Below are positions 4,005 through 21,188 of a stretch of DNA of 64,000 nt, piece after piece. Source of the stretch: Pleurostoma richardsiae (taxonomy: Eukaryota > Ascomycota > Sordariomycetes > Calosphaeriales > Pleurostomataceae); assembly GCA_030052745.1 (NCBI GenBank), contig JANBVO010000005.1, forward strand, positions 1,178,001 to 1,242,000, read 5' to 3'. The first letter of the stretch is position 1, and the number at the start of each line of letters is the position of its first letter. The notes under the pieces are model-generated. The model did not search any database, was not told the DNA's origin, and was given only the letters and a program-made list of their open reading frames with translations. The position numbers were made by a program, and so were the translations under genes.

Positions 4005-6260
4005 TTAACTCCAAGGTGTCTGCACCATATGGAGGAACTCCGCTCCACTTCCCAGCAACATATTTCCGGCGTAGTTGGTTGAGTCAAGCAAGAAGCCCAG
4101 GGGATCTGCTGATGGAGAGAATTCGCCAGTAAGGATTTGCGCAGCGAAGGTGGACTGCGATGCTCGAGGGACACTGTTCGTAGTTGCTGTAACATCAATG
4201 GTCTGCTTGAGAATTATGAGAATCAACACTACATTTCTGGTGGAACGAAAAGAACAAACCGGCAAATCCTGTCTGATCCGGTGAGACTCCGGTATGCCTT
4301 CTGCGTCTAGCGAGAGCAGCTCCGCGGAAGCGATCTCCAGTGCTCTGTGCCAATGTGCAGCAATCGGCCACGCACCACATATCTCCAAGAGATCTTTCTT
4401 TGACCTCTCCACTATGCCCTCAGACTGGTGAGCAAGCTGTGGGCAAAGCCGGGGGCATCTCCACAGTTGTGTAGCCAGCGAGCCACATAAGTAAACGCTG
4501 AACGCCAATAGGGGGGGAAAACCTTCCGTAAGAGGCCTATGGGTAAGATAGAGCGCGATTCCCTGGTGCAAAGAGAGAACGTTGGTGAAAAGTTCTTCCG
4601 ACATGTTCTCGCAGAAGACATAATGCGTGTCTTTGTTCAGGATGCCGTCTTTGATGTCCGCAAGATACGTTCGGCGAAGGACGATGTTGCAGAGCCGCAT
4701 CCCCAGGAAAATAGACGCATATGCAAGGTCTAGATTCTGTGCTCTATATACCCGCAAGTTCCATTCCGACCACGCATGCTCCTTTGAGAGGCCAGCCTCC
4801 CATTCTAAGAGGGCCATGGCCTGTTGTGAGTAGTGGCTGGCATTGTCCCAGAGGTGGACGTCAGCAGTCTTCGTTACTCTCGCATCGAGGCATGCATCAC
4901 GGGCGATTTGACCCCAAAATTTGTATGCTTGAATGACAGACCCGAATAGCGACCTCGATGAGCAGTTGACCAGTTCCGGGCAATCAAGAGCCGCTTGGGA
5001 GGTTGGCAGGGCAGCTCGGGCCTTCGGGAGGACACCGAACGCAAAGTCGTTTTCTTCGCATGGCAGCAGCGCCGTGAGGTCGTTCAAGGCAAACGGTACA
5101 GGGGAGTGGTGTCCTGCAAACAAATTCCGAAGCACTGGCAAACTATGTCAGACGGTCCTGTACCAAGATGCGGAAGCCGTACTGCCCATCATCCACAAGG
5201 TTCGCCGGGCTTCCTCTGAATGAATGATATCCTCCGGTTGTGCATTGACTGAAGGAGTATACGTATCCTCTCTGTGGAGGCGAAGCATTCCTACTATCGT
5301 CGAAGCAACACCGAGATGAATCTGATGGATCGATTAGTCAGTGTCGGAGATTATCGAGAGCACACAACGCTCACAAGACTCCTGTTGCAGTCGCCTTTTG
5401 CCCATTCGGCAGCCCCTAGGAGGATGAAACCCTGGGCAGTCTCAAGCGTCGGCTTGTACATCTCCGTGGGAGCCATTTGCTCCGCCATCTTGATAAAGAT
5501 ATCAGCAGCTTTGGCAGCTCCATCATACCGCTTGATGAGACTTGGCGTAAATCTGGCCGACATACTAATAATGCATATTAACAAGAATTGGTTGATGGAT
5601 CTGAAATTACTCTCAACCTGGGTGAGAAAGCGCACTTTCGGAACGAAATCCAGTTGGAAGCAGCAGTTGACGTATACTTTGCAAGTTTCAATAATTTCTT
5701 CTCTTGAAAGCAGTTCGTGCAGGGGCCGCTGCATCGTCGCTGCTGCCGTCGCTGTCACTGTCGGCTGGACGGACCTACCTGAGGATTAGAACAGAGGGAT
5801 TAACACGATGCAAGTAGTCTCACGTAGAAGCAGACTCGGATGTTGCCGGTCGAGTGATGGGTGAACTTGTGCTTGATGCCTGGTGGTCTATATCAGTCAA
5901 CTGTTCCTTTCCAAGTTGCATGCGACTGACTTACTTTGATCTCCTTTCCTCCACGTCCGACAAAGACACTCCTTACTGTCAGCCCTTTCCGACCCACCAG
6001 GGATAGTTCGCATGCATACCAAGTCTCCGCTACTGCCGGCCCAGCTTCTCGGCAGCCAGCACATGGGGGCTTAGCCCCATCATGCTTACATTTGCTACGA
6101 TGACGGCGGCAGCTATTGGAGGGGTCAGTTAGTGCTCCCCCGAAGGTAGACCAACAGCTTACCGTGTGCAAGCTACAGTCGCTCTCTTTGTTCTGGCCGA
6201 GGGCGGGAAAGCCTGGTTGTAGGATACTGCCCTTGAGCGGTACTCGGACCTTGGAATCAT
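4005..6260 (-). CDS. Zn2Cys6 transcription factor with fungal-specific TF domain (cluster regulator A)
   Basis: Six exons on the minus strand (6260-6163, 6112-5935, 5879-5824, 5774-5375, 5321-5183, 5134-4005) close in phase to 666 aa. The zinc cluster is split by intron 1: Cys31, 34 and 41, then 50, 53 and 67, with basic residues RRHRSK between Cys34 and Cys41. The spacing before the last Cys (13 residues) is longer than usual, so the donor in this part of exon 2 may differ from my model. A Ser/Thr linker follows (residues about 93-115). The middle-homology domain carries EEARRTLWMM and, after a 48-nt intron, LLPCEENDF, which are hallmark stretches of the Fungal_trans family. Without that intron the frame holds a TGA. 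The gene lies tail to tail with the membrane protein and head to head with the MBL-fold hydrolase, sharing a 498-bp promoter. It is probably the local activator of the cluster. Confidence 0.88.
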
Positions 6261-6758
6261 GTTCGCTACGAATATGACAGTGTGGAGTGAAAGGGGAGCG
6301 ACTCTCAGGTCTGGACGAGATGGTGGCTTAACTACTTACGTAAAGCAACTGTGGAACTCTAGTTCAGAAACTCTAGTTCAAATGATAGGACTGATAATCA
6401 CCGAACCCACGCTATCTCCTTGACATCTGCACCAGCACCCCCTCAGTGTTCGAACTAACGATGAGCAGTTTGAAGACCGAATCCTTCCAGTAGACGATAG
6501 CTTCTTATGGACTAGTGCACCCTAGGTGTGACGCTATCTATCTATTCCGGCGGCATGGACATGTACTCCCCAACCAGATACAATATCAGCTTCCGACTCT
6601 TTGGATCCCGGCGGCACTCGATAAGACCTGTCACCGGACAACGAATGAACGACGCTAGATAGCTTACCTCGCGTGAACCGAGCTTTATTTACTTAGTGAA
6701 CATCGATTCCAACCGTAGCAAACTCCAGCATGGCAGCGCCAGAGGTCGAATTCTCAGA
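6261..6758. promoter_or_regulatory. Divergent promoter between regulator A and the MBL-fold hydrolase
   Basis: This 498-bp segment separates two start codons facing away from each other, so it must hold the control elements of both genes. It contains two exact copies of the 9-mer CCGGCGGCA at 6547-6555 and 6608-6616, in the same orientation and 61 bp apart. CGG triplets are the usual half-sites of Zn2Cys6 proteins. Autoregulation of regulator A and co-regulation of the hydrolase are inferences. Confidence 0.6.
6547..6616 (+). promoter_or_regulatory. Pair of CCGGCGGCA candidate Zn2Cys6 sites
   Basis: Two copies of CCGGCGGCA occur at 6547-6555 and 6608-6616. The second sits in the 13-mer GATCCCGGCGGCA, which recurs exactly on the opposite strand at 16820-16832 upstream of the permease. 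The same heptamer core occurs upstream of the ADH and the NRPS-like gene. Binding by a regulator is inferred from the recurrence only. Confidence 0.45.
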
Positions 6759-7986
6759 ATGGGATTGCTTCTGCCGAAGTCAGATAACACAGTCCGCGTG
6801 TGGGCGATTGATACGACCACAAACCAGGTTGTCGACGCAAGAGCGTTTATTGAACCAGTTCACAAGGGCCATGAGACCCTCAACCTCCCAACCTTGGCTT
6901 TCCTCGTTGAGCACGAGCAGCTAGGGAGAAGAGTGCTCTTCGACTGCGGCGGGCGGAAGGACTACCAGCAATTCAGCCCTGGCGTGCTCATAAAGATGGA
7001 TGAAATCCTGTTTTCCATGAGAGTTGACCAGGACATCGACGAAATTCTTGAGGAAGCTGGCATAGCTCTTGAGACGATTGACAGCATGATTTGGAGTCAT
7101 TGGCATTTTGATCACCACGGCGCACCTGATCATTTCCCGAAGAGCGTTGAGATCGTGGTGGGCCCGGGCTTCAAAGATCTGTTCATGCCAGGCTTTCCAA
7201 CGCGCCCGGACGCAATTCTCTCTGATGTTTACTTCGAGTACGCAACCAATACTTCATCCATCGGAAGAAGACTGTGCTAACAGCGTGCTCAGGGGGCGTG
7301 AAGTTCGCGAGATAGCATTCAGTGACAGCAACTTCAAGCTTGGTGCGTTTCCAGCTTTCGATTACTTTGGGGACGGCTCCTTCTATCTGCTCGATAGCCC
7401 AGGCCATGCTGTAGGCCACATTTGCGCGCTTGCACGGACCACTCCTGATACCTTTGTCTTCATGGGAGGAGATATCTGTCACAGCCCCGGGAATTACCGC
7501 CCCACGAATGTGTTTTCGTTACCAGATCACATACCGCAAGGCCAACTCGATCCAGGATTTCCAGCGCCTTGTCCATGCTCGCTCTTCACACCACTCCATC
7601 CCTCATATCCCGACACAGACAAGGCACGGACAACGCCATTTTTTGGCTTGTCGAGGACCAAGACCTCAACTTTCATAGACATCACCGCAGCGAACAGCAG
7701 CGTCGAGGCCATGCGCCAGTTTGAAGAGAGTCCCGATGTCCTCGTCTGCATCTCGCATGATATGGCGCTCATCAACATCTTGCCACTTCTCAATAAGGAC
7801 CCTAAAGCGGACATCAATGACTGGAAAGTTAAGGGGTTAAAGGAAGAGGCGCGGTGGTTTTGGCTCAATGAACTTCCAAGAGGCGGGAAACCGGGCCGGC
7901 CACCGTTTGTGGACGGCCGCTTTTGGAGAGGTCACAAGGTTGAATCGTGGACAGACCCGGTGCCAGCCGCTCTAGACGCTAAATAG
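6759..7986 (+). CDS. Metallo-beta-lactamase-fold hydrolase (lactonase/lactamase-like)
   Basis: Two exons (6759-7237, 7293-7986; 55-nt intron with GTACGC donor and CTAAC branch) give 390 aa. The zinc-binding HxHxDH motif is intact as SHWHFDHHGA (His114, His116, Asp118, His119). Further ligands fit His198 in SPGHAVGH and Asp220 in MGGDICH, and a late SHD motif follows. These match the cytosolic MBL hydrolases that resemble bacterial AHL lactonases and fungal lactamases. There is no signal peptide. The start is the first in-frame ATG upstream of the conserved beta-strand; the frame is open further upstream but without an ATG. Likely chemistry is zinc-dependent opening of a lactone, lactam or thioester; the substrate is unknown. 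It shares a promoter with regulator A and is followed 484 bp downstream by the ADH in the same direction. Confidence 0.88.
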
Positions 7987-8325
7987 GCCGGACAGTCTCA
8001 CACTTCCAGAGCCTCATGGTTTTACATGTACAGTGTAACAATGTCCTGTATAGAACTGCCATCCAGGTTCGTCATACCGATATAGAAACCTGAAGCGACC
8101 GCCCGCAGGTCCAGGGCAGGCGGGGATTGTTGACACGATCGGAGCCGCGGGCACCCTTGGCCCAGGACTGCAGACTAATGCAAGGTACGCCGCAAGGTAG
8201 ATTAGACAGAGTCGGGCAGGGAGAAGAATTCAATGTCATGTTTGGTGCTCATCATTCAGTGCTGTCACTCTCTTCGGCCTTTAGACCAGCTCCGCCAGAT
8301 CGCAAGTTGTTTGCCCCTTATCATT

Positions 8326-8334
8326 TGCCGCCGG
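8326..8334 (-). promoter_or_regulatory. CCGGCGGCA motif in the ADH promoter
   Basis: TGCCGCCGG on the plus strand is the reverse complement of the CCGGCGGCA 9-mer found twice upstream of the MBL-fold gene. It lies 137 bp before the ADH start codon. It is a candidate binding site of a cluster regulator, on recurrence alone. Confidence 0.4.
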
Positions 8335-8470
8335 CATTTTAGATCTCGCGACCCCGTCGAATGGACCCGCAATCCGGCGCACAAGCGCCTTAAATGCAAT
8401 GCGAAGATCTAAGCGAGTTCAAGCTTCTCTCACCTTTCCATTTCCGATTCGCTGTTCAGAAAGGGCTTTG

Positions 8471-9879
8471 ATGGCTACCCGGAAACTCACATATCTGGCT
8501 GGGGGCGAAGATGGCAGCATCAGGGTGAAGACGGCGGTCCGCGCTGTCGGCGGGCTTGAGGTTGTCGTCAGAATCACCCATTGCGGCGTGTGCGGCACTG
8601 ATGGGCATGATCGAACTGCGGGGTGCGGACTGGGCCATGAGGGCATAGGCATCGTAGAAGAAATTGGCAAAGAGGTGACGGCAATCAAGGTCGGCCAGCG
8701 TGTCGGGTGCAGGTCAGTCGCCCTCTATAGAGATTCCAGATGCTTGAACTGACATGATTCTAATAGCTGGCAAACGTCGGTATGCGAGGACCCCGTCCAC
8801 TTTCCTCCTGCTGCCCTGGAATGTCTTGGATGCTCTGACAGTCTACGCTTTGAAGTACTATACTGACACACATGTCATAGTCGTGCGGTCACTGTCGCGA
8901 ATGCTTCACTGGTTATCGACAGTATTGCCCAGAATCCCTTGGTCAAAAGTACGGAGACTTGGAGCAAGGTGCTTTCGGCGACTATGTGGTGAGACATCAG
9001 GACTTTGTATACCCAATTCCTGATGAAATCGAGTCGAAGTATGCTGGTCCGCTCATCTGTGCTGGTGTGAGTCATCCTCTGAACAGCGAGTTCCTGGCTG
9101 CGTGCTCTGGCTCTGACTTCCGGCATTAATTAGATTACCGTTTTTGAGGCGCTCATGGTGGCTGAGACCAAATCGACTGATCGAGTCGGCATCGTCGGCT
9201 TGGGCGGGCTGGGTCACCTTGCAGTGATGTACGCACGCGCAATGGGGTGCGACGTGGTCGTTCTATCGAGCCGTGAAGATAAGAGAGCCGATGCGATGAA
9301 GCTCGGAGCCACTGAATTCAGCGTGCTGCGTCCTCAAGAGCAATCAAGTACCGAATCTTCGGCGAACATAAATGTCCTCCTGCTCTGCGGCGGTAGCATG
9401 TCTGACCTTAGCTGGTACTGCCTGCAAAACCCCCCTTGAGAAGACCAGAGACTGACAGAGGTCGGCAGTTTGATACCACTGCTCGCACGTCGGGCCAGGA
9501 TTATTCCACTCGTCATTCAGGGAGAGCCCCTCGTCATTCCGTAAGTCATCTCCTACCAGATGATAACATACAGCGTTTGACCTTCCTAACTAGATATATG
9601 CCGTTCCTACTCCCTGGCCATCGAATCATGTGAGTCGACCTCCCTTGCTGTTGTACGATTGTGGCTCACATCTGACCACCATTCAGCGCAAGCACTGCAG
9701 CTACAAAAGAGAACCATGCTGGCGCCCTCCTCTTTGCTGCGCGTCACAACATCAAACCATGGATCGAGGAGTTCCCCATGAGCGTAGAGGGACTGACAAA
9801 GGCCTTGGAGAAGCTGCAGAACGGCTCCATCTTCTACCGGGCAGTCTTGAGCACGGAAGTCGGGACCGAATTAAAATAA
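8471..9879 (+). CDS. Zinc-dependent alcohol dehydrogenase (MDR superfamily)
   Basis: Seven exons (8471-8712, 8767-8779, 8881-9066, 9134-9414, 9469-9540, 9594-9629, 9687-9879) close in phase to 340 aa, the normal length for the family. Catalytic zinc ligands are visible as Cys38 ([11 protein letters not shown]) and His56-Glu57 (GLGHEGIG). A four-Cys structural zinc site follows in [16 protein letters not shown]. The Rossmann loop reads [13 protein letters not shown]. Exon 2 is only 13 nt and supplies the codons joining the catalytic domain to the structural zinc loop; without it the frame is lost. An ATG at 8399 is also in frame, but the 8471 start fits family length. It would interconvert an alcohol and an aldehyde using NAD(P)H, a sensible partner for the aldehyde-releasing NRPS-like enzyme next door. 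All introns have GT..AG ends. Confidence 0.87.
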
Positions 9880-10274
9880 TGACCTGATATAGCGAAATAT
9901 AGAAGCAGGGCCTTGAGCCTATCTATTGTGTCTGTTGAAAGCTGGAAGTCCGAATTTAGCTTCATCTGCGCCACTCGAATCTTCGTGACGCGGTTCAATA
10001 TTCCAATGAGACCACTCACCTACCCCTAATTACCGACATGCCGATGGTATGTCTGGAGGACTCATCCAACGCAGCCTGTGATTTGAGATGCAGAGATCGC
10101 GCAAGATATTGCAGTCGCAAAGGTGGGGCAAGATCTACTCCGGCCCGGGAGATCGATGATGGTGATGGTCGGACTGACTGAAGCGTTTTCTCCACCGATT
10201 CAGTCGTAATGAGATCTACGATGCTAAGTTACGATCGCGCTATCTCGCTCACTTCAACCTGAAACCGCTGAAAC

Positions 10275-10607
10275 TTACTGTTGCCGGTTGCTCTCGAATG
10301 TCTCGCCCAGATGATTTCCCGGCGGTACGATAAGGAACGTGACATCATAATCATTGAAAGGATCGGCAACGCCAAAGATCCCGATGTTATCTTTTACCGC
10401 CGGGAAATATTGCCAGCCGTTGGCGCCCCTGCTATCAACGGTATCGCTCTGATCTGAGTTAGCATTGCCGGAAACCCTTTGCAAGTGGATATCTGGCACC
10501 GGCACACTGCCTGGACTAGTCAACTCCTTCCTGGGAAGTACGGGACGTAGGCCAAAGGGACGAGAGAGAAATACTGCGTTAGATGTCAGGCGGCTGAGAT
10601 CTGGCAA
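10275..10607 (-). pseudogene. Open frame of unknown origin, possible gene remnant
   Basis: A 110-codon open frame lies on the minus strand between the ADH and the NRPS-like gene. Its peptide looks protein-like (GWQYFPAVKDN, GIFGVADPFNDY, FLIVPPGNHLGETFESN) and the frame ends at a good splice donor, CA|GTAAGT. It has no in-frame ATG, and any 5' exon would have to lie antisense to the start of the NRPS-like gene. I therefore read it as a relic or a chance frame rather than a working gene. The family was not recognised. The two mirrored CCGGCGG sites of this interval fall inside it. Confidence 0.25.
10315..10407. promoter_or_regulatory. 13-bp inverted repeat of the CCGGCGG motif upstream of the NRPS-like gene
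   Basis: TTTCCCGGCGGTA at 10315-10327 is repeated exactly as its reverse complement TACCGCCGGGAAA at 10395-10407. The pair lies about 280-370 bp before the NRPS-like start codon. Each arm carries the CCGGCGG core shared with the hydrolase, ADH and permease promoters. An inverted pair of CGG-type sites is a plausible target for a dimeric Zn2Cys6 factor. If the antisense frame at 10275-10607 is truly coding, the arms encode FPAV and VPPG and the symmetry could be chance. Confidence 0.45.
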
Positions 10608-10686
10608 GCTACAGAGATTCTTTTCAAGACTCTAAACTTGAAAGACGGATCCCACTCCTCCAAACGATATTACATTTCGAGGAGAG

Positions 10687-13600
10687 ATGGGAAGCTACGC
10701 TGAGGTAGAGGAGTACGGCAAACGCCTCCTGCCGACTGTCGTCGACAACGCTGCCGAAAAGAGACCGGATCGGATTGCGTATTCTTTTCCGATTGGGGAC
10801 GATCCCGCTGATGGCTTCCATCATATCACAAACCAGCGATACGCGAATGCGGTGAACAGGACGGCATGGTGTATCGAGAAGTGCTTTGGCAAGCCAGCCC
10901 CTGGCTCTTTCCCGACCATCGGATATATCGGACCAAGTAAGTTCCAGTGCTCTTGATACGGTGGCCTCCCTTTTGACCTTGCAGCCAGATGATCTTCGAT
11001 ATGGAATGTTGGCCATTGCAGCGGTCAAGGTGGGATATAAAGTAAGTGGACCTCTGAATCAATCAAGACAGACCATAAACGTTTAGGAGTTTGTTAGATG
11101 ATGTTTCTCTCCCCTCGGAACAGTGTAGAGGGACATCTGGCTGTTGTTGATCGGTGTGGCTGCGAACTATGGATGCTTCCGACCCAGAAGCTCGGCCATG
11201 TTGAACAAATCCTTGCGAAACGATCGATGAAGGTGGCCGACTTACCGGATCAACTGGACCTGCTTCATGATGGTCTCGCGCCGAAATATCCATACCGCAA
11301 GACCTTCGCAGACGCACGCCAGGATCCTTTCGTTGTACTGCACACATCAGGGTCTACGGGATTACCAAAGCCCGTCGTGGTTCCCAATGGCAGTCTGGCC
11401 ACAACTGATGCACATCATCTATTGCCACCAGTCGAGGGCCGTTTGACTCAAGCTCAGTTCTTCACCACACCATGCCGAGCTTATTCCACCTTTCCAAATT
11501 TTCACGTAAGAAGCCACCCTCGTTCTGATCAAGGGTTAGTCTAACTAATAGTCCACCACCGTTAGTCGGCAGGCATGGTGTTCTGCTTTGCCATGCCGTT
11601 CTTCTATGAGCTCAGCATCGTCATGGGGCCTGCCTCGGTCCCTGTTAACCTGGATCTGGTCAATTCTATGCTAGATCATGCGGAAGTTGACGGCTCGCTC
11701 CTGGCACCTTCAACACTGGAGGAAATATCCAAGAATCCCGCATCCCTTGCCCGAATGGCCAAGACTTCGTTCACAGTTTTTGGCGGTGGTGCGTTTCTGA
11801 TCGTATATGCTTGTCGCTATTCCATGCTGACGAAGCACAGGGCCTCTCAACAAAGAATGCGGAGATCGGATCAACGCTGTCACTCGCGTGTTCAACATTA
11901 TGGGCGTCACAGAGGGTTCCCTCTTTCCCGTAATCCAGGCGGAGCGCGAGGACTGGCATTATCACCATTTCCACCCTTGGGGCGGCTATACCTACAGTCA
12001 GCGCACTGAAGAGCTCTGGGAGCAGTCTCAAACCCGTGACCCCAAGCTCAGTTTGTTTCAAGCCTTCTTGCAAACTTTTCCGAATCAGAATGAAGTCGCT
12101 ACTAAGGACCTCTACTCGAAACATCCTACAAAACCGGGAAGATGGCTGTACAGAGGCCGTGCAGACGACGTGATCGTGTTGTCCAATGGGGAGAAGGTGA
12201 ACCCCGTCGACATGGAGGCGTGCATCAATAGCCACCCAGCCGTCAAGGCGTCTTTAGTTGTATGTTTCTCAGAATACGCTGGACCAACGTGAGCGCTAAT
12301 CTTTCTACAGGTCGGGCAAGGCAGGTTCCAGACTGCAGTCTTAATCGAGCTCTTCGAACCTCTGCCCCCTACGGAAGAGGGTGTCCAAGCACTGAAAGAG
12401 AGCCTATGGATAAACATTGAAAACGCCAACCGGGGGGCCCCAGCGCATGGTCAACTCCACAAGGATCATGTCTTGTTCGCAACAAACGATAAACCATTCA
12501 TCTTGGCCGGCAAAGACACCGTGCTACGTGCTATGACGGTCAGGCTGTATGAGACTGAGATTAACGATCTCTACGAAAGCCAAGAGCGACGAGAAGCATC
12601 CGGGGCACTTTGCATCGACGTCGTAGACCTTGCATCCATCCAACAAGGCGTCCACAGCCTGCTGTCTCGAATTTTGAGCGCTCCATCTCTGGCAAAGAAT
12701 GACGACCTGTTTGTCACCGGGCTAGACTCTCTCTCCGTCTTCAGCGTCTTGGGCAGCCTTCGTTCCAGCTTGCAGGCTGCAGGCTGGGGAGACGGTCATG
12801 CCGTGACAGCCGGCATGATCTACTCCAATCCCACTGTTGAGAAGCTTTCCACAGCTATGGACCACTTGGTTCGACCAGTTTCTGATGCCCAAATGGTTGC
12901 TACAACAGAGCAGCTCATGAGAGATCTACTGAAGAAGTACACATCTGACCTGCCAGACAGACCTTCCCGCACGCCCGAGGCGCCGGCAGGCGGCTTCTCC
13001 GTGATCATCACGGGCACCACAGGCTCATTGGGCTCTTATCTCCTCGACACGCTCCTGTCTATGGGCAACATCCGAAGAATTTTCTGCCTTAACCGATCAA
13101 TAGATGCGTTTGAAAGACAGATCCGAGACAATCGCGCGCGGGGACTGAAGGAAGACTTGACTTCCGAGCGCGTCAAGTTCATGCAAGCCAATCTTTCAAA
13201 GCCCAAATTGGGCCTAGATAGCGACAGTTATGAAGAACTCTTGCAGGATACAACACATATCATTCGTAAGTCGCACCCATCCACTCCTCGTTCCATGAAG
13301 AACGGTCGCTCAAGTGGTTCTAGACAACCAATGGCAAGTCGATTTCAACCTACACCTTTTGTCTTTCGAACCTCACATCCGCGGTGTACGGCACCTGGTC
13401 GACTTCGCACTCCAGAGCACTCGGAATCCAGCTATTTTCTTTATCTCCTCAGTGGGAGTGGTGAAGGGTCAACAGACGAAGGGCTCAATACCTGAAGCCC
13501 TAGTAACCGACTTCGCGGGAGCAGAAGGGGGCTATGGGCAGTCTAAGCTGGTCTCAGAGTTGATCCTGGATAGAGCAAGCACTACGAGCGGAGTAAAGTG

Positions 13601-14251
13601 CAGCATCTGCCGCTTAGGACAGATCGCCGGACCAGTGGACATGCCATCGGGAATGTGGAATGTCCAGGAGTGGCTACCTTCGGTCAGTCATTTCTCTACG
13701 CAGCCAATATACCACGACCTCTCGTTACCTAAGTACTACATGCTGACATTTCATCCTAGATCATCGCCAGCTCAAAGTATCTGGGCATGCTCCCCTGCAG
13801 CTTGTCATCGTTGGATAGGATCGACTGGATTCCGGTAAATCACGTTGCACAAATCATCGCCGAACTCGCGGGGCTGTGTGGTGAGAAGCAAGATATTACA
13901 ACCGCCATCTGCTCTCCTGTGCGTGTCTTTCACGGGGTCAACCCGTCAGCATCACCGTGGTCATCTCTTGTCCCGATCGTCGCATCTTGCCTGGGGCCGG
14001 CTGTCTCCACCGTGCCCTGGGCCGACTGGCTAGCTGCCCTGGAAGCCAGCGAGCGGAAAGGCGACTACCGCCAAAACCCAGGGATCAAGCTCTTAGAATT
14101 CTACAGGGACGTGGACAATGCTGGAGCATCTGGCTTTCCCCTGCCGGTCCTGGAGACCAGGGCAACGCAGCTAAGAAGCGAAAGGTTGCGTACTCTGAGA
14201 CCCGTAAACAAGGATTGGATGGCCCAGTGGATGAAGCAGTGGGGATTTTGA
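10687..14251 (+). CDS. NRPS-like adenylate-forming reductase (A-T-R)
   Basis: Eight exons (10687-10936, 10989-11041, 11098-11505, 11566-11788, 11841-12259, 12311-13265, 13324-13682, 13760-14251) close in phase to 1052 aa. The adenylation domain spans about residues 15-530, with GPNDLRY near 84, the P-loop-like HTSGSTGLPKP near 183, FNIMGVTEGS, and YRGRADDVIVLSNGEKVNP. The carrier domain has DDLFVTGLDSLS with Ser591 as the phosphopantetheine site. The thioester-reductase domain begins at the GTTGSLG NAD(P) loop (686-692) and has the YxxxK pair Tyr840/Lys844. No condensation or thioesterase domain is present. The family activates a carboxylic acid, tethers it and releases it reductively as an aldehyde or alcohol. 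The substrate cannot be read from the sequence. It is the core enzyme of the cluster and points towards the permease. Confidence 0.9.
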
Positions 14252-14815
14252 GCATTATCAAGGACGGAAGACAATTGTTCCCGAGTACCTACTGGTTTAT
14301 TAATCGCACTCGCCCTTTTGTAGATCATGTTTCAGCACCGCTAAGTTCAGTGTGAGAACTGCAAAACGCGTCTCCTACTCACGCAAGAACATCAATAATA
14401 AAACCGCTGCACAATTTCTCAAGTTTTTGAAAATTTTGAAGAGCTTCCATACTTATTTCGATATTGTGCCGGTCAAGGCCGAGCGGCGAGTTGTCCATAT
14501 ACGGTGCATCTAGGTAGTTAGACGAAATAATAATAGCCATGTGTCTCCAATAAAATGTGTACTCTCCCCGACCTCTCCTCTGCTGGCACAACGTGCATCT
14601 ATTTCAAAACGAAAGACCGTAAACAACCTGATCAGGCCTACTCTCTGCTTCATGACATCCTGCAAGCATCCCGAAGCAGAAGATGAAACGTTTTATCGTC
14701 GGAAAGAAAAGACAAAGACAGACTTCCAAGAGATGTAACTAGTCGACAATTAAGAACAGTGTAATAGAGGGTATAGGGTCGAGCACCATGTCCTCGCCAA
14801 TCCATGCGGAAGGAA
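14252..14815. other. Convergent intergenic region between NRPS-like gene and permease
   Basis: This 564-bp AT-rich segment lies between two converging 3' ends. It should contain both polyadenylation regions. I see no open frame or RNA gene that can be supported. Confidence 0.6.
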
Positions 14816-16554
14816 TCATCGTCCCGTGAGACGACGCTCCAGAGTCCGTAGGGGGACATAACTCATAATACTGAGCACGAACCCGACCTCAAATCCAATA
14901 TCACCTGTCGTACGAGCTATTGGCCCAGTATACCAAGTCTCAGCCATGCAAGGAACGATCAGGCCGAAAGGGATGATGACCGAAAGGACCGCAGCCGCAC
15001 CAACCGGCAGTTTGCTCCCAACATTCCAGATGGCATGGTCGTAGGCGGAGGCATCCCGCTTACGAAAGTAAACGTGCTCCGTCGCCACGATGCCGATGAA
15101 GACCGCCGCCCAGTAGGAGATGACGCCGAGGAAGGCCTCCAGCGATTCCTCAAGGGAAGTGCTGATGGGGATGGCCGCTCCAATAACGATAGCTGTAGTG
15201 ACAATCGAGAAGATGTATCTGGGTACCTTGCTGAGGATCGGCAAGAGCATCTGAAACTGCATCGTGATGGAATACATGGTCCCGGCGATGTTTCCCAGGA
15301 GGGAAAATGCGATGACTACGGCGACGAACTTTCCGAATCCGCCAGCCGGGCTCAGCATCTCCAGCATTACGCCGCCAGTCGAGCCAGCGGCGAACGCAGC
15401 TGTCCACGAAGGGATGCTTGGAATCGCTCCACCAATTGCCGCGCCTAGACACATGAGAGGGATCGTCGGCAGGACCAGGCCACCATATGTATATAGGAAG
15501 ATGCGGGTTCTAGGTCTCGTCAGCAGTGTCCCTATTCCAGTCCTACGAGAGGGAAGCAACGTACTTAGGAACACTAGGATGCACATAAACACAAAAATCA
15601 GACACCATGGTGACCCAGGTCATGGTGAACGAGGTGACAACGCAACCGTAGGTCAGGACGCCGGCGGCCGTCACCGGCTCGGTCGGTGCCTGCATCTTGA
15701 GGAGATGGCCACCGCATCCCACTGTGATGAGGATGGAAATGAGCGCCGGTATCCAGGCCCAGCGCTCGTAGGTGTGGACAACTCTGTAGCCCAGAAACGC
15801 AATCAGGAGCGACGCCATAGAGATGATGACAATGCCTAGATCCCAGCTCAAGCTCCCGCCGCTCACAGCAGACAGAGTCTCGCCGGCAATGATTGCGCTC
15901 ACGATAGACCATCCAATGGTCGTCGCCAGGTTGAACAGGGCGACGATGAAGATGGCATAGAGCCCGAAGCTGTACCGAGCCTGTACAATCTGTCGCATTC
16001 CAGTCTGGGGACCTAGGATGCCTAGAAGGGCTGGAGGAATAGCGGCGAGGAGAGTGAAGAATAAGATCGTCAGAGATGCCGCCTCTAGGCTCAGCCCTTC
16101 GAAGTATGTGCCGACAATCCCGTTCGTAATACTTTCAGGACAATATGTGAGCTTACGTGCAACTCCACGCCAGATTCGGGGGACCCCGGGAGACTTACGC
16201 CAGTGGAGTGAGACTTGCAGTCCACCAGAACGAGAAAATGTTGAATGGCCGCTTGTCGTTTCGTTCCTCAAGTGGAACGGGCTGCACACCACGCACTTCC
16301 ACTCCATAAGAGGCGAGCCGTTTCCACCATGAGGGCGGGATTTCTTCGACACACTGCGTCTGCGTTGGTTCGACTGCTCTCTTCTCGAGATCACTCTCGT
16401 ATGGACTGGTGGACTCCATGGCGGTCATATGTCCCGGTTTGTCTGAGGTAGCACACCTAAAGGCTGGTCGAAGCTCAAGTGAGGTCTCAAAGAACTTCTC
16501 ACTGTCCAGTTGTTTGATACTTTCGACTTCCCAGGCAGGAGACCGACCCTTCAT
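14816..16554 (-). CDS. NCS1-family purine-cytosine permease
   Basis: Three exons (16554-16199, 16131-15565, 15509-14816) close in phase to 538 aa. If the later in-frame ATG at 16431 is used the product is about 497 aa, also normal for the family, so the start is uncertain. The N-terminal cytoplasmic part contains WWKRLASYGVEVRGVQPVP, typical of Fcy2-like transporters, followed by FSFWWTASLTPLA at the first membrane helix. About twelve hydrophobic segments follow, including YSFGLYAIFIVALFNLATT-like and FLYTYGGLVLP motifs. NCS1 permeases carry cytosine, purines, allantoin, pyridoxine, thiamine precursors or related N-heterocycles by proton or sodium symport at the plasma membrane. Its place between the NRPS-like reductase and the monooxygenase suggests transport of a cluster substrate or product. 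Two CCGGCGG motifs lie upstream at 16805-16832. Confidence 0.87.
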
Positions 16555-17142
16555 AAGTGCTCAAAACAGAGACAAGTATTCTGGAAGTTTACCACACTAT
16601 TCCTAGGCTACCGAGGCCACCGCAATAGATAACGAGTCTTGGCCACCTGAAAGTTTCGATAATGATAGGCAGGGTCTGGAAAGTGAAGCTTGCTGAGCCT
16701 GATCCGCTGCTAGCCCTCAATCTCCAATGCTGTCCGGCAACTGATTGCCCAATGTTTCCTTGCTTGGTTATGTGGTGTCTGCTTGCATGGGGCCTTATCT
16801 TGATCCGCCGGCTTCTAATTGCCGCCGGGATCGTTATCCTTTGCCACCGGGATCTGATATTCTCTTTTGAGTGCTGCACTACACTAAATACGATGCCAAG
16901 AACTCATACGTAGACTGTGCTTCGACGAATTTCCCCATTCGTCCTCTGTTCAGACTCGAGGACATACTGCTCGCGGATGTTCCGATGGCGCCACCGGTAC
17001 AGAAGATAGAAGGCTTCCATCACCCAATTACGGCACAATTGTTAGCTTCTTGAATGGCATGCACCGATTCAATCGCTTGCATTCCTCGGTTTAGGGGAGA
17101 GGAGAAAATCAATGCAATAACTGCGTTGACAATGGCCCGTTC
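16555..17142. other. Intergenic region: permease promoter and FAD monooxygenase 3' region
   Basis: This 588-bp interval precedes the permease start and follows the stop of the monooxygenase, both on the minus strand. No gene is supported. It contains the CCGGCGG motifs listed separately at 16805-16832. Confidence 0.6.
16805..16832 (-). promoter_or_regulatory. Two CCGGCGG motifs upstream of the permease
   Basis: CCGCCGG occurs at 16805-16811 and inside TGCCGCCGGGATC at 16820-16832, about 250-280 bp upstream of the longest permease start. The second is an exact 13-bp reverse-complement match to 6604-6616 in the regulator A/MBL divergent promoter. This links the permease to the same putative regulon as the left-half genes. 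It is a sequence observation; binding is inferred. Confidence 0.45.
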
Positions 17143-18435
17143 TCATCCCCGACCCTGGACCATCTCTTCATACTCCGGCAGGACCCATCCTCCGACATCC
17201 TCACGTAGGCCCCATTCGCCGAAAGCATTCACCCCCAAGTACGATGCCATTGCAAATACAGAGTTCATCATCGTGACTCCAATCGACGTTGATGGAAGCA
17301 TGCTCCAGCGGCCCGGATTCTCCAGCCCCCTCTGCACTCGGTCCATGAAGGGCCTGAACTTCTGCTCGTAAGCCTTCAGCGCGAGAGCGACACCGTCCTC
17401 AGCTCTCATACCCTTCCCATCGGTGCCCTCTGTCCCTGGACTTCCGCAATGCCTGGCAATCTCGCCAGCGAGCACATAAGCACCGACGATGGCAGAGGTC
17501 GTCCCCATCCCAGTACTCGCCGAAGGGCAATACGCCGCATCCCCTGTGAGAGCTATGCGGCCGCACGACCACGAGTTCAGCTTGACGATGCCCATCCGCT
17601 CGAGATAGAAGTCGTCCGCCTCTTCCAGCCATTGTAGAATCTGATGCGTCTGCCACCCCGCGCCCCGGAAGACATCTGCCATAGCGTCCTTTTCCGCCCT
17701 GATACCCGAACTGTGAGCCTTCAGAAGCCGGTCCGAGTCACTATTGCAGGCGAGGTACACCTGGACCATATTCTGGCTGTGCCTCCGCGTAAGTATGAAT
17801 CGTCTGCCGGGGGCGTTGTACGACGTGGCGATGTACTCCTCGCTCTCTTGGATCGGCCTGTGGGCGGTGAAATATCCTATGTACAGGCCACCGAGAGGCC
17901 GGAAACCGTCATCCGTCTCGGGACCGAGCATTTTCCTGCGTGTGTGCGAGCCCTGGCCATCGGCGCCAATCAGCAGGTCAAACCGGTCCTTCTCGCCGTC
18001 TGCAAAAAGCACCTCGACGGCGTCATATTTCTCCTCAAAGCTCTCGATGGAAGTCCCAAAGATGTATCTGGCGTCGTCTTTCGTGGCGTCATATAGGATC
18101 CGACACAAGTCGCCTCTCATAATCTCGAAGTCGCTGCTGAAGCTCTGCAAGCCCTTACCCGACCTGTTCACACGGAGATAGGCCCACCGTTTCCCGGAGC
18201 GGTCAACCATCTGGATGCCCTGCTCCCGGACCGCCTTGGCACGGAAAGTCTGCTCGAGACCCATCCGCCGCAGAACATCGATACCGTGCCCACGCAAGTC
18301 CACCTGGAGGCCCGAGGCCCGCAGTCTGGGGAATCGCTCGACGACGGTTACGCTATGGCCCACCTTCGATAACCAGAATGCGAGGGCGTTTCCTGCGATG
18401 CCGCCGCCACTGATGAGGACCTTCACACGCGCCAT
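17143..18435 (-). CDS. FAD-dependent monooxygenase (PHBH/TetX-like, FAD_binding_3)
   Basis: A single uninterrupted exon encodes 430 aa. The N-terminal dinucleotide-binding loop GGGIAGNALAF starts at residue 10 and is followed by an acidic Glu at the end of strand 2 (VVERFPRLR). The internal DG motif reads GADGQGSHTRR and the late GD motif reads LTGDAAYCPS, binding the flavin. These are the three class A flavoprotein hydroxylase signatures. The enzyme would use FAD, NAD(P)H and oxygen to hydroxylate or epoxidise an aromatic or enolised substrate. No C-terminal membrane anchor is evident. The absence of introns contrasts with the multi-exon cluster neighbours. The 465 bp upstream carry a 12-bp palindrome also partly shared with the regulator B promoter. 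It is probably a tailoring or degradative step of the cluster. Confidence 0.9.
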   Translation of the reverse strand: MARVKVLISGGGIAGNALAFWLSKVGHSVTVVERFPRLRASGLQVDLRGHGIDVLRRMGLEQTFRAKAVREQGIQMVDRSGKRWAYLRVNRSGKGLQSFSSDFEIMRGDLCRILYDATKDDARYIFGTSIESFEEKYDAVEVLFADGEKDRFDLLIGADGQGSHTRRKMLGPETDDGFRPLGGLYIGYFTAHRPIQESEEYIATSYNAPGRRFILTRRHSQNMVQVYLACNSDSDRLLKAHSSGIRAEKDAMADVFRGAGWQTHQILQWLEEADDFYLERMGIVKLNSWSCGRIALTGDAAYCPSASTGMGTTSAIVGAYVLAGEIARHCGSPGTEGTDGKGMRAEDGVALALKAYEQKFRPFMDRVQRGLENPGRWSMLPSTSIGVTMMNSVFAMASYLGVNAFGEWGLREDVGGWVLPEYEEMVQGRG

Positions 18436-18900
18436 AATCTATTGCGCTCTATCAGACCCAGATGCAGGAGTCAAAGTGAGAAAGTATAATCGCTCGTGAT
18501 TGGATCAAAAAGACTGCCAGAAGTCCAATTGCGTACTTTTTATCACACCAGACAACTTTGCAGACAAGATCAGTCGTCTCGGTATTTTGTGGTGGCAGGC
18601 TTGGCTATCTCCGCCATTTGTAGACGCCATCGCCGCTCGCCGCCCTCTCGGCCGAGAAGAAGGGGAAAAGCCAACTGTCATGAAAATACTGTTAGACGTG
18701 GACTCGTTGGATATCATCGGTGATACTGTAGACCCATGGGAAGGCAGATCATTTTATACAGTGCATCGCGTTATGTCTAGAATGACCAGCTATTCCGGAC
18801 TCCGTAATACTCCGTAAACAGCCTGAGAAGTACAGGCGCGCTGTCAACGACGAATAATCATACAAGATCTCCTAAATGTGATCGTTAATACATGGTCCCA
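18436..18900. promoter_or_regulatory. Promoter region of the FAD monooxygenase
   Basis: This 465-bp segment lies between the monooxygenase start and the 3' end of regulator B, both on the minus strand. It carries the palindrome at 18646-18657 and a tandem pair of ACTCCGTA at 18799-18806 and 18809-18816. No CCGGCGG core is present, unlike the left-half promoters. No gene is supported here. Confidence 0.5.
18646..18657. promoter_or_regulatory. TCTCGGCCGAGA palindrome upstream of the FAD monooxygenase
   Basis: A perfect 12-bp palindrome lies 211-222 bp before the monooxygenase start. It contains CGG and CCG abutting as CGGCCG, a possible dimeric Zn2Cys6 target. The 10-mer CTCTCGGCCG (18645-18654) recurs at 21204-21213, just upstream of the regulator B start codon. 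Confidence 0.4.
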
Positions 18901-21188
18901 TTATGAGAAGTCCGCATCAGGCAGGAAAAGGCTCAGATCAAAGTCCAGTGCTAAGCCCGCTTGCCCTCCATCAAAGCTTGCCGCAATATCCATGTCGCCG
19001 AGGCCAGGCACGGAAACAGAGCTGGCCTGTGCCTCCAGCAGACCATAACAGAACTCAAGGCTGTCCCTCGCGCTCTGCAGCATCTTCAACTCGCAAGAGG
19101 AGCCTTCCTCTATCGCCTCAACCTGGGCTATGATCATTTTCAGGAACGTATGGGACTTGATATTGGTCTCGCCGCGGCGGATCCGGTCCACCGACAGCGA
19201 GACCATGTCTCTCAAAGTCTGCTTCAGGATCTCTCTGTGCTGCGAGTTGCGGTGCAGCGTTCCGTCGAGGCGCTGAGTCTCGACTTGCACAATGAGCTCG
19301 TGGCTGATGACGGCGAGTGCATACCTGATCGCCTCTCTAAAGAAGCCTCCGCCGATCGCGGTGAGGTGAGAGAACCCTTCGTCCGGCTCCGGCGAGATCA
19401 GGGCCATGGCGGTATCTAGACTAATCTTGCGGGAGTAGTGGAACAGAGGATTCGTCCGTGCCTTCATGGCAAATGGGCAGTGCAGGGGGATCAGGAACCT
19501 CCGCACTAGGTGGTCGAGCAGGTTCCGGTGGAAAGAAATCACCCCCGACTCCTTGTTCTCCTGCGTGAAAATGCTACACGCCGAACATGCGTCAGTAATA
19601 TCGGAGCTCAAGGTCAGGGCGTCAGTGTAGGAGAGTTCAGAATGCAAGCTGTTCATAAGCTGGACGACACGGAGGCGTGTGCGCATGGAATCTAGCAAGA
19701 GAAGCTGTATCGATACCGCGGTATACGTGCCTTTTGGGTGAGGCACAAGCTCCGTGGTCGAGTCACTTATCTCTTCGTCGTTGTTATTAGAAGGCGCCTC
19801 GGTATCAAACTCATCAAAGGATATCCTGGGCGGCATTGCAGAGTCCAAGGACGACTGTACGACCATCTCTAGTATGGTTGCCCAAAGCCTCCTGTGCAGC
19901 TCGGCCTGCAGGATGGACATTGCTGGAAGATGCTTGGGATCGCGATGTAGACCCATCTGCATGGCTCTATGAATAAGGGAGCCCATTGACATCCACACCA
20001 AATCACCACCCACAGAGAAGATCTGGCGTGCTAGGATAGTCAAGCAGTGCACTTGCAGTCCGGTAATGTTCAGGCGATCCTTCTCCAGTGGTCCTGAGAG
20101 CCAAGTCTGCGCAGCGTATACCCACTGGTGAACCATATTGTTGAACTCCGCATCCTTGTCCCCACGTTCGCAGAGACTCGATCCTATCCCGATGACAAGG
20201 AGAATCTTGAGACGCAGGCCAGTTGTCACACTGTCACGGTTCCCCCAGTACTGGTGGTACTCGGTCCAGAAGCTGGGTACGTGAAGGATCCGGTGCGTCG
20301 ACTCAAATGATCTGAAGTATAGTCGCACCATTGAGTCCGCTACCTCACGCGACGGTGGTGCAATGCCAAACTCGGGATACGCGAGGGACCTGCTGGGGCG
20401 TCCGACCTTGATGCTCCTCGCCAGGACCTTGCATTTCTGGAGGAGGCTGCCAGCCTGCGCAACCACGCTCCTGATCTCAGGGTCTTGAAACGCGGCATCG
20501 CCGCAGTTGCCGCCGGCCATCTCCGTGTAGCAGTCGCCGACCTTTGCGAACTTGGGGGTAATTAGGCAGATGTCAGGGCAAGCTTGTAAGGACTTTACTG
20601 TACCTCTTGTGCCGTTCCCATCCAGTGGCTCCATCCTAGAAGCCTTGTCTTGTTCATGATTATTTGCGAGTCTGGCAATCCAGTCTCACGGGCGAGTATG
20701 GCTCGACTAGTCTCGGATAGCCCCTGGACTGGGCTGGATGCTGACGATTCCTCGAGTCTCTCGACCCTCTGTATAAGGTCTTGGATAGTTTGTTCTTCAC
20801 TTCCCGGGCGGTTCGGTGACCAGATCCAGTTGCGAGCTGTGGTATTGGGAACGGAAGATGATACTGAAGGTGGTGCTCCTCTAGACCAGAGTCCAAATGA
20901 CTGGCGCACACCCTCAGCGGCTGGTCTACTCGCGCCGTCCTGTGTGATACGGACTGCAGGTGCAGGAGCCTTGGCCGCCGGGCTTGACGGCAAGCTTCCT
21001 GGGCTCCTGGACCGCTGATGCTGCCGCGGGACCGCGATGGATGCATCACTATAGACCTTGTATACACATTGAGTCTTGACAGACGTGCAATGGCTGCATG
21101 GGCTATTGCGGTCGCATTTGATCTTGCGGCGCCGGCATTCGACGCAGGAAAGGGCAGGTCGCCGACGTCGTAGAGGTTCTCGGTCCAT
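18901..21188 (-). CDS. Zn2Cys6 transcription factor with fungal-specific TF domain (cluster regulator B)
   Basis: Two exons (21188-20604, 20550-18901) with a 53-nt intron give 744 aa. The zinc cluster is canonical: Cys15, 18, 25, 31, 34 and 41 with RRRKIK between the second and third Cys. A Ser/Pro/Ala-rich linker follows, then a short predicted coiled coil (TIQDLIQRVERLEES, near 145). The GWSHWMG stretch sits just before the intron. The middle-homology domain begins with VRLYFRSFESTHRILHVPSF and continues with LHRDP and LHRRLWATILEM-like segments typical of Fungal_trans. The C-terminus (LFLPDADFS) is acidic and hydrophobic, possibly activating. It bounds the right side of the cluster, transcribed towards it. 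Confidence 0.9.

What the first reader, a model, noticed from the sequence alone, without database searches (positions are those of the whole stretch)
4005..21188. Compact seven-gene cluster around an A-T-R NRPS-like reductase
Seven neighbouring genes form a coherent set: two Zn2Cys6 regulators at the borders and, between them, an MBL-fold hydrolase, zinc ADH, NRPS-like A-T-R reductase, NCS1 permease and FAD monooxygenase. All are intact in my models. I know of no described cluster with exactly this combination. The chemistry suggests an acid reduced to aldehyde/alcohol, oxygenated and hydrolytically processed.
Basis: partly seen in the sequence, partly recalled or inferred. Interest (0 to 1): 0.85.

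Follow-up and report, generated by a model that had tools for sequence, protein, structure and literature searches.

The report
Co-regulated fungal uptake-and-reduction gene cluster
Five neighbouring fungal genes (a regulator, an importer, a ring- or ester-opening hydrolase, an acid reductase and an alcohol dehydrogenase) share a DNA switch that is rare in the rest of the genome, which suggests they work together to take in and chemically neutralise or use a small, probably aromatic molecule rather than to build a new natural product.

Summary
All seven genes are present and look intact at the stated places, but they do not look like one seven-gene unit. Five (Zn2Cys6 regulator ZnR1, MBL hydrolase, zinc ADH, A-T-R carboxylate reductase CAR, NCS1 permease; 4005-16428) share a composite promoter element, TTATC-N5-CCGCCGG. 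It occurs once in each of their four promoter regions and 10 times in the 39.4-Mb genome. The FAD monooxygenase (FMO) and second regulator (ZnR2) lack it. In Thozetella sp. the CAR and MBL orthologues are on contigs of identical length, probably one scaffold; no Thozetella protein was among the 120 FMO hits listed. ZnR1 and NCS1 paralogues sit together at three other loci here, beside isochorismatase with dioxygenase-like genes or with kynureninase and IDO; at two of these, promoters repeat a related word (TTGCCGG, CTGCCGG). Best reading: a regulated import-and-conversion (catabolic or detoxifying) cluster. NCS1 imports, MBL opens a lactone, lactam or ester, CAR reduces the acid to an aldehyde, ADH reduces that to an alcohol. 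Substrate and direction are inferred. CAR keeps the residues reported essential in NcCAR but lies outside the NcCAR/TtCAR-type clade. New variant of a known kind.

The parts
4005..6260 (-). ZnR1: Zn2Cys6 regulator, 7 exons, 646 aa; member of the co-regulated unit
   Evidence: Corrected model; Zn_clus 22.0 bits and Fungal_trans 23.4 bits; paralogues at C46, C57, C77, C60 and two weaker places
6759..7986 (+). MBL-fold hydrolase, 2 exons (6759-7237, 7293-7986), 390 aa, HxHxDHxG motif; member of the unit
   Evidence: fold of orthologue P0121 closest to AHL lactonases, with 4-pyridoxolactonase also listed
8471..9879 (+). Zinc alcohol dehydrogenase, 7 exons, 340 aa; member of the unit
10687..14251 (+). 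CAR: A-T-R carboxylate reductase (NRPS-like), 8 exons, 1052 aa; member of the unit
14816..16428 (-). NCS1 (purine-cytosine-type) permease, 3 exons, 498 aa; member of the unit
6608..6624 (-). Composite element TTATC-N5-CCGCCGG in the divergent ZnR1/MBL promoter (135 bp from MBL ATG)
8318..8334 (+). Composite element TTATC-N5-CCGCCGG in the ADH promoter (137 bp from ATG)
10387..10403 (+). Composite element TTATC-N5-CCGCCGG in the CAR promoter (284 bp from ATG)
16795..16811 (+). Composite element TTATC-N5-CCGCCGG in the NCS1 promoter (367 bp from ATG)
6547..6553 (-). Further CCGCCGG core, ZnR1/MBL promoter
10319..10325 (-). Further CCGCCGG core, CAR promoter, preceded by TTATC with a 3-bp spacer
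16822..16828 (+). Further CCGCCGG core, NCS1 promoter; a one-mismatch composite copy lies at 16834-16850
17143..18435 (-). FAD monooxygenase (FMO), single exon, 430 aa; neighbour, probably not in the unit
18901..21188 (-). ZnR2: second Zn2Cys6 regulator, 2 exons, 744 aa; neighbour, probably not in the unit

Best explanation
The unit is five genes (ZnR1, MBL, ADH, CAR, NCS1; 4005-16428). They are switched on together, most likely by ZnR1 binding the CCGCCGG core next to a GATA-factor-like site (TTATC). NCS1 imports a small, probably aromatic or N-heteroaromatic compound. MBL hydrolyses a lactone, lactam or ester in it and so sets free a carboxylic acid. CAR activates the acid with ATP, loads it on its phosphopantetheine arm and reduces it with NADPH to the aldehyde. 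ADH reduces the aldehyde to the alcohol. The result is uptake plus catabolism or detoxification. FMO and ZnR2 are an adjoining pair that may or may not act on the same compound. Shown by sequence: gene content, the shared element, conserved catalytic residues, and paralogous regulator-permease loci. Inferred: that ZnR1 is the binder, the import direction, the order of reactions, and the substrate class.
For: (1) CCGCCGG is the commonest 7-mer of the four promoter regions: 7 copies in 2,503 bp, in 4 of 4 regions, against 21 in the other 61.5 kb of the window. It is absent from the FMO promoter, the ZnR2 promoter and the CAR/NCS1 convergent 3' region. (2) The composite TTATC-N5-CCGCCGG has 4 copies in the window, shuffle mean 0.01, and 10 in the whole genome, reversed control 4. 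The 4 fall one in each of the four promoters; the other 6 lie on six other contigs, and the 7 ORFs that I tested beside them suggest no common pathway. Drawing 7 sites from 101 other CCGCCGG sites, 0 of 20,000 draws shared a 5-mer at one offset in 4 or more sites. (3) CAR and MBL of Thozetella sp. PMI_491 are the top-ranked relatives (68%, 74%), both listed on a contig of 276,141 bases. (4) ZnR1 paralogues lie within about 8 kb of NCS1 paralogues at 3 of 6 places (C46, C57, C77); chance about 1e-5. The nearest MBL paralogue, 1 of 6 places, is the divergent neighbour of an NCS1 paralogue (C43). (5) Those three loci carry isochorismatase and HgmA-like dioxygenase genes (C46, C57) or two isochorismatases, kynureninase and IDO (C77). 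C57 intergenic stretches repeat TTGCCGG (11 in 3.5 kb against 4 in 26.5 kb) and C46 ones CTGCCGG (8 against 7). (6) CAR keeps the positions equivalent to NcCAR H237, E433, S595, Y844 and K848 (mapped by motif and numbering through a Neurospora hispaniola protein; residue list from passages of PMC5826065) and, in the direct alignment to NcCAR, Ser815, Tyr844, Lys848, Gln873, Glu888.
Against: The element was noticed in these promoters first, so its counts are post hoc. Allowing for all 7-mers, a word with 7 or more copies in all four regions came up in 1 of 1000 shuffles but in 26 of 1000 sets of random stretches from 25-64 kb; a word with 7 or more copies anywhere came up in 3 of 1000 shuffles and 143 of 1000 such sets, and in 4 of 300 shuffles in a second run. 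With two mismatches allowed the composite is not special (11 matches against 5.4 expected, 3 of 100 shuffles as many). GATA-like sites alone are not confined to the unit: 3 in the FMO promoter. Thozetella linkage is read from equal contig lengths, not from a map. Sporothrix eucalyptigena has both orthologues on contigs listed with different lengths (550,341 and 250,616). Xylariales sp. PMI_506 and Capronia epimyces have the CAR but no MBL named among the 120 listed. ADH, NCS1 and the regulators were not searched outside this genome. ZnR1 paralogues at 3 of 6 places have no NCS1 neighbour. Of 15 NCS1 places, four more were fetched (C45, C58, C49, C1) and none of their 12 scanned ORFs was an isochorismatase or ring dioxygenase; seven were not fetched. 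At C77 and C43 no promoter word stood out. The paralogue loci contain enzymes absent here, so similarity of pathway is loose. No expression data exist here, and reduction of an acid is also common in biosynthesis.
Confidence: 0.6

Rival explanations
1. A seven-gene biosynthetic cluster: an acid made elsewhere is reduced, oxygenated by FMO and hydrolysed, under two regulators.
For: All seven genes are adjacent and intact in my models. NRPS-like reductases sit beside regulators in biosynthetic clusters (Results and Discussion of PMC9605436 read); that FAD monooxygenases and paired regulators are frequent there is established knowledge.
Against: FMO and ZnR2 lack the shared element. No Thozetella protein was named among the 120 FMO hits listed. 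No PKS, multimodular NRPS or terpene synthase domain among the seven proteins. Regulator and permease paralogues sit together in three loci that look catabolic.
Confidence: 0.15
2. The five genes serve degradation of a vitamin-B6-like or other pyridine lactone: NCS1 imports it, MBL acts like 4-pyridoxolactonase, and FMO acts like the pyridine-ring oxygenases.
For: Foldseek lists AHL lactonases first and also 4-pyridoxolactonase for the MBL orthologue. FMO matches tetracycline destructases, 6-hydroxynicotinate 3-monooxygenase and, weakly, 2-methyl-3-hydroxypyridine-5-carboxylate oxygenase. The Pfam family of the permease is titled cytosine/purines, uracil, thiamine, allantoin; that it also holds B6 permeases is recalled.
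Against: The fold match is to a large superfamily (TMq about 0.5, identity 13-18%). B6 degradation uses oxidations, not acid reduction (recalled). FMO is probably outside the unit.
Confidence: 0.07
3. Benzoxazolinone-type phytoalexin detoxification, as by the Fusarium FDB1 cluster: MBL opens the lactam and the other genes process the product.
For: MBL homologues include a protein named 'Gamma-lactamase MBL1' (48%). FDB1 has an MBL with the HxHxDHxG motif, an FAD-binding protein, a transporter and a fungal transcription factor (passages of PMC4726666 and PMC10512309).
Against: No amidase, dienelactone hydrolase or arylamine N-acetyltransferase domain among the seven proteins. The MBL1-named Exophiala protein falls in another clade of the MBL tree; Fusarium Mbl1 itself was not compared. 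In the passages seen, no A-T-R reductase is named in the FDB clusters, though FDB2 has an AMP-binding enzyme.
Confidence: 0.12
4. Only MBL-ADH-CAR are a metabolic unit; ZnR1 and NCS1 are neighbours by chance and the promoter word is general.
For: CAR and MBL are the only pair with evidence of linkage in another fungus.
Against: ZnR1 shares its promoter region with MBL, and the NCS1 promoter carries the composite element plus a further core. The composite element occurs 10 times in 39.4 Mb.
Confidence: 0.06

Closest known systems
Fungal carboxylic acid reductases NcCAR/TtCAR (A-T-R, type III)
   Same: Same domain order and similar length. R domain matches NcCAR (8aep) at 332 bits over residues 652-1052. 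The residues reported essential have equivalents in the window protein (A- and T-domain positions mapped through a Neurospora hispaniola protein).
   Different: Falls in a separate clade of 8 rows (SH-aLRT 100) with Thozetella, Xylariales sp., Capronia, two Sporothrix species and two metagenome proteins. The Neurospora and Thermothelomyces proteins in the tree (taken as NcCAR/TtCAR orthologues from recall) are elsewhere. Substrate unknown.
Fusarium FDB1/FDB2 benzoxazolinone detoxification clusters
   Same: MBL hydrolase with HxHxDHxG, transporter, fungal transcription factor, and (next door here) an FAD-binding protein
   Different: No amidase, dienelactone hydrolase or N-acetyltransferase here; no A-T-R reductase named there in the passages seen; transporter there annotated as amino acid type (passages only)
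Aspergillus nidulans hxn nicotinate catabolic cluster
   Same: Clustered, co-induced catabolic genes with their own regulator and control by the GATA factor AreA (abstract)
   Different: Regulator is Cys2His2, not Zn2Cys6; no molybdenum hydroxylase among the seven proteins; nitrogen control here is only suggested by GATA-like sites
NR-PKS/CAR aryl-aldehyde clusters (AtCAR, PnlA and others, clade VI)
   Same: A-T-R reductase; in the PnlA cluster also a transcription factor
   Different: No polyketide synthase among the seven proteins; an importer, a hydrolase and a dehydrogenase instead (Results and Discussion of PMC9605436 read)

Membership tests
Fungal carboxylate reductase (CAR, A-T-R) | Adenylation, thiolation and thioester-reductase domains in one chain | tested here: met
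   AMP-binding, AMP-binding_C_3 and NAD_binding_4 called; T domain by the GLDSLS motif and alignment only, PF00550 not called
Fungal carboxylate reductase (CAR, A-T-R) | Residues essential in NcCAR (H237, E433, S595, Y844, K848) conserved | tested here: met
   Y844 and K848 in the alignment to NcCAR itself; H237, E433, S595 mapped by motif and numbering through Neurospora/Thermothelomyces proteins; residue list from passages of PMC5826065
Fungal carboxylate reductase (CAR, A-T-R) | Reduces a carboxylic acid to an aldehyde with ATP and NADPH | not testable with these tools
   Needs an enzyme assay
NcCAR/TtCAR subclade | Groups with the NcCAR/TtCAR-type proteins | tested here: not met
   Tree of 42 rows, SH-aLRT only; identity of the two reference rows as orthologues is recalled
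AHL-lactonase-type MBL hydrolase | HxHxDHxG motif plus further metal ligands conserved | tested here: met
   Motif HWHFDHHG and the later H, D, H positions read in the window protein; invariant H114, H116, D118, H119, H198, D220, H315 in an alignment of 30 homologues that did not include the window protein
AHL-lactonase-type MBL hydrolase | Same fold as solved lactonases | tested here: met
   Model of the Thozetella orthologue, not of the window protein (pLDDT 90.8); best PDB matches AHL lactonases, E about 1e-12, identity 17-18%, TMq about 0.48
FDB1-type benzoxazolinone cluster | MBL1 orthologue plus amidase and dienelactone hydrolase | tested here: not met
   No amidase or dienelactone hydrolase domain among the seven proteins; a protein named MBL1 lies in another clade; Mbl1 of Fusarium itself was not compared
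Secondary-metabolite biosynthetic cluster with a core synthase | PKS, multimodular NRPS, terpene synthase or similar core enzyme | tested here: not met
   Only the single A-T-R protein among the seven
Co-regulated fungal gene cluster | Shared regulatory element in all members and not in neighbours | tested here: met
   Composite element in 4 of 4 promoter regions of the five genes, 0 in the FMO and ZnR2 promoters; post hoc, see controls
Co-regulated fungal gene cluster | Co-expression | not testable with these tools
   No expression data
Co-regulated fungal gene cluster | Conserved synteny in relatives | tested here: inconclusive
   CAR and MBL on contigs of equal length in Thozetella; contigs of different listed length in Sporothrix eucalyptigena; ADH, NCS1 and the regulators not searched outside this genome

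The most novel reading that the evidence does not exclude
This fungus holds a family of 'importer modules', each made of a ZnR1-type Zn2Cys6 regulator, an NCS1 permease and a swappable set of enzymes for one aromatic or N-heteroaromatic compound. Regulator and operator have diverged together: CCGCCGG here, TTGCCGG at C57, CTGCCGG at C46, all of the form YYGCCGG. The present module is the one in which ring cleavage has been replaced by lactone/lactam opening and reduction of the acid to an alcohol.
Probability: 0.4. Interest if true: 0.65.

Novelty: new variant of a known kind. Interest (0 to 1): 0.5.

Why it matters
Which genes belong to a fungal cluster is usually guessed from adjacency. Here a cis-element that is nearly private to the locus draws the border at five of seven genes and so makes a direct prediction: one regulator, one inducer, one import-and-reduce pathway. 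The paralogous modules with related but different promoter words give a small natural series for testing how Zn2Cys6 regulators and their operators co-evolve, and they give substrate hints (indole, tryptophan or homogentisate-like catabolism) for a clade of carboxylate reductases of which I know no characterised member.

Tried and rejected
Seven-gene unit: rejected as drawn, since FMO and ZnR2 lack the shared element and no Thozetella protein was named among the 120 FMO hits listed.

Window motif as a general operator of all paralogous modules: rejected. CCGCCGG is not enriched at C46, C57, C77 or C43; related words are enriched at C57 and C46 only.

The six other genomic copies of the composite element as further regulon members: no support. 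Seven ORFs in the six 3-kb stretches were scanned: diphthamide synthase, a transcription factor, a MaoC-like protein (below its cut-off), a sulfatase, a methyltransferase, a WD40/GPIID-type protein (there the site lies inside the ORF), and one ORF without a match. Their number is near the reversed-pattern control (6 against 4).

ADH as a marker of paralogous modules: too many homologues (52 matches, the gene's own exons included); two were near a fetched NCS1 paralogue, at C1 about 3 kb and at C49 about 17 kb away.

Other NCS1 loci: at C45, C58, C49 and C1 the 12 ORFs scanned gave HET, aldo/keto reductase, GLEYA/PA14, amidohydrolase, two transcription-factor genes, a sugar transporter, a GH3 enzyme or no match, and no ring-cleavage enzyme. 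Fifty ORFs, chosen by hand from the list, were scanned.

FMO-ZnR2 as a separate recurrent pair: 3 of 10 FMO paralogue places lie within 11 kb of a ZnR2 paralogue, but both families are large, so this is suggestive only.

First models corrected: the first reductase model was out of frame (corrected, before any search); the MBL acceptor was moved (393 to 390 aa); a ZnR1 intron was added so that the sixth cysteine is encoded. Searches used the earlier MBL model, and the earlier ZnR1 model. The first count of promoter words at C46 counted one stretch twice and is replaced.

Literature: no paper describing this gene combination was found in the ten searches (openly licensed papers only). Searches listed nothing. 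Seen of papers: abstract, Results and Discussion of PMC9605436; passages of PMC4726666, PMC10512309, PMC10168641, PMC5826065 and PMC5610705; abstract of PMC5746545; the rest as search listings.

Not done: synteny maps in relatives, because no fungal genome other than the window's own could be reached with these tools.

Full report
WHAT IS THERE. The window lies in a 39.4-Mb genome of 136 contigs; introns and relatives show it to be an ascomycete fungus. Pfam confirms each family. ZnR1 reaches the Zn_clus cut-off only in the corrected model, by one bit. In that model an intron splits the codon of the sixth cysteine; the ZnR1 paralogues at C77, C46 and C60 show an intron-like break at the same place, the one at C57 does not. 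On the left lies a coding stretch whose three ORFs (1592-3839) have no Pfam match; on the right is a methyltransferase-domain gene (25109-26410; sterol methyltransferase by recall).

THE REDUCTASE. The protein is a fungal carboxylate reductase. Its R domain matches the solved R domain of the Neurospora crassa enzyme (8aep) at 332 bits (identity of 8aep from passages of PMC10168641). The residues whose replacement abolished NcCAR activity (H237, E433, S595, Y844, K848; passages of PMC5826065) have equivalents in the window protein: Y844 and K848 in the direct alignment, the other three by motif and numbering through a Neurospora hispaniola protein. Ser815, Gln873 and Glu888 of the R-domain active site are also kept. 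A two-electron reduction to the aldehyde is therefore expected, and the neighbouring zinc ADH, whose best solved relatives are alcohol, carbonyl and cinnamyl-type dehydrogenases, would give the alcohol. In a tree of 42 rows (41 of the 120 listed hits plus the window) the protein falls in a clade of 8 (SH-aLRT 100) with Thozetella sp. PMI_491, Xylariales sp. PMI_506, Capronia epimyces, two Sporothrix species and two metagenome proteins; the Neurospora and Thermothelomyces proteins fall elsewhere. I know of no characterised member of this clade (recall). The search scored 7,994 candidates, 1,310 passed E 0.001, and the best 120 were listed.

THE HYDROLASE. The MBL has the HxHxDHxG motif. Among 30 homologues the likely metal-ligand positions are invariant. 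A model of the Thozetella orthologue (pLDDT 90.8) is closest in the PDB to AHL lactonases, with 4-pyridoxolactonase further down the list, at 13-18% identity and TMq about 0.5. This supports a lactonase/lactamase-type hydrolase; it does not name the substrate.

WHICH GENES BELONG TOGETHER. Evidence 1, promoters. The word CCGCCGG occurs 7 times in the 2,503 bp of the four promoter regions of ZnR1/MBL, ADH, CAR and NCS1 and in each of them. It occurs 0 times in the FMO promoter (465 bp), the 1,012 bp upstream of ZnR2, the convergent CAR/NCS1 region (564 bp) and the 165 bp left of ZnR1. It is the commonest 7-mer there, the next having 4 copies. Because I noticed it by eye, I tested all 7-mers. 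A word with 7 or more copies in all four regions turned up in 1 of 1000 dinucleotide shuffles, but in 26 of 1000 sets of random stretches from the GC-richer 25-64 kb; a word with 7 or more copies regardless of spread turned up in 3 of 1000 shuffles and 143 of 1000 such sets, and in 4 of 300 shuffles in a second run. The word count alone is thus moderate evidence. Four of the 7 copies are preceded by TTATC at exactly 5 bp, a fifth at 3 bp. The composite TTATC-N5-CCGCCGG occurs 4 times in the window against 0.01 expected and 10 times in the whole genome, the reversed control 4 times. The four are one in each of the four promoter regions; the other six are single sites on six other contigs, beside ORFs of unrelated kinds where tested. 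With two mismatches allowed the pattern is not special (11 against 5.4 expected). The composite was read off these sites, so I also asked how often 7 CCGCCGG sites drawn from 101 others share any 5-mer at any one offset in 4 or more sites: 0 of 20,000 draws, 3 sites in 91 draws. TTATC is the reverse complement of the GATAA core of GATA-factor sites (established knowledge), as at nitrogen-regulated fungal genes; that AreA-type control applies here is inference, and GATA-like sites alone also occur in the FMO promoter (3).

Evidence 2, relatives. Thozetella sp. PMI_491 gives the top-ranked CAR hit (68%) and the top-ranked MBL hit (74%), both on contigs listed with 276,141 bases, hence most likely one scaffold. 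In the MBL tree (44 rows) that protein and the window's fall in one clade of 10 (SH-aLRT 99), while a second Thozetella copy pairs with the paralogue on contig C43 (SH-aLRT 92). Against this, Sporothrix eucalyptigena has both orthologues on contigs of different listed length, which may be two assemblies or true separation, and for PMI_506 and Capronia epimyces no MBL was named among the 120 listed. I had no further protein searches for ADH, NCS1 and the regulators.

Evidence 3, paralogous loci in the same genome. ZnR1 has paralogues at six places outside the window. Three of them (C46, C57, C77) lie within about 8 kb of an NCS1 paralogue, of which there are 15 places. By chance this is about 1 in 100,000 for 3 of 6. 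The C46 and C57 loci carry isochorismatase and homogentisate-dioxygenase-like genes; C77 carries two isochorismatases, kynureninase and indoleamine 2,3-dioxygenase. The other three ZnR1 paralogues (C60, C50 and a second on C46) have no NCS1 match nearby. Four further NCS1 loci were fetched (C45, C58, C49, C1) and none of their 12 scanned ORFs was an isochorismatase or ring dioxygenase; seven NCS1 places were not fetched. The closest MBL paralogue (60-63%, C43) is the divergent neighbour of an NCS1 paralogue. In the intergenic stretches of C57, TTGCCGG occurs 11 times in 3.5 kb against 4 in the other 26.5 kb (0 of 300 shuffles reach the top count). At C46, CTGCCGG occurs 8 times in 3.5 kb against 7 in 26.5 kb (1 of 300 shuffles). 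At C77 and C43 nothing stands out (44 and 73 of 300 shuffles). Those stretches were drawn by hand from ORF and match coordinates and may include some exon sequence. The three words share the form YYGCCGG.

READING. Together these draw a five-gene unit, ZnR1-MBL-ADH-CAR-NCS1, with FMO and ZnR2 as neighbours. Its regulator and permease have paralogues that sit together in three loci that look catabolic for tryptophan- and homogentisate-like compounds; it has an importer-type permease and no core synthase. I therefore favour uptake and conversion of an outside compound: import, hydrolytic opening to an acid, reduction to aldehyde and alcohol. Reduction of aryl acids to alcohols is a known fungal way of disarming them (established knowledge). 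The regulator-operator link, the direction of transport, the substrate and the reaction order are inferred and untested.

NOVELTY. Each part is of a known kind. The combination was not found in ten searches of openly licensed papers, and the Fusarium FDB clusters and the hxn cluster share only the general plan. I class it as a new variant of a known kind.

Noticed in passing
L013-L015 (C46:294001-324000) and L010-L012 (C57:249001-279000): Two paralogous loci each hold a ZnR1-type regulator, an NCS1 permease, an isochorismatase and a homogentisate-1,2-dioxygenase-like gene; C57 also has a P450 next door.
   Followed up: partly
L007-L009 (C77:108001-138000): A locus with ZnR1-type regulator, NCS1 permease, two isochorismatases, kynureninase and indoleamine 2,3-dioxygenase: looks like a tryptophan/kynurenine catabolic cluster.
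   Followed up: partly
L004 (C50:181001-191000), 184424-188661: An NRPS-like/CAR homologue is split: A-domain part on the minus strand, reductase part on the plus strand about 1 kb away; a rearranged copy or two separate genes.
   Followed up: no
L002 (C43:746001-753444): Second MBL copy divergent from an NCS1 permease, followed by an RTA1-like gene, close to the contig end; its sister in the tree is a second Thozetella copy.
   Followed up: partly
window 17143-18435: FMO's closest solved relatives are tetracycline destructases Tet(50/51/55/56) and proteins named 6-hydroxynicotinate 3-monooxygenase; it has no close paralogue in this genome (next best 29%, partial).
   Followed up: partly
window 14816-16428, 4005-6260 and 18901-21188: Four modelled introns end in AAG or GAG instead of CAG/TAG (two in NCS1, one in ZnR1, one in ZnR2).
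   Followed up: no
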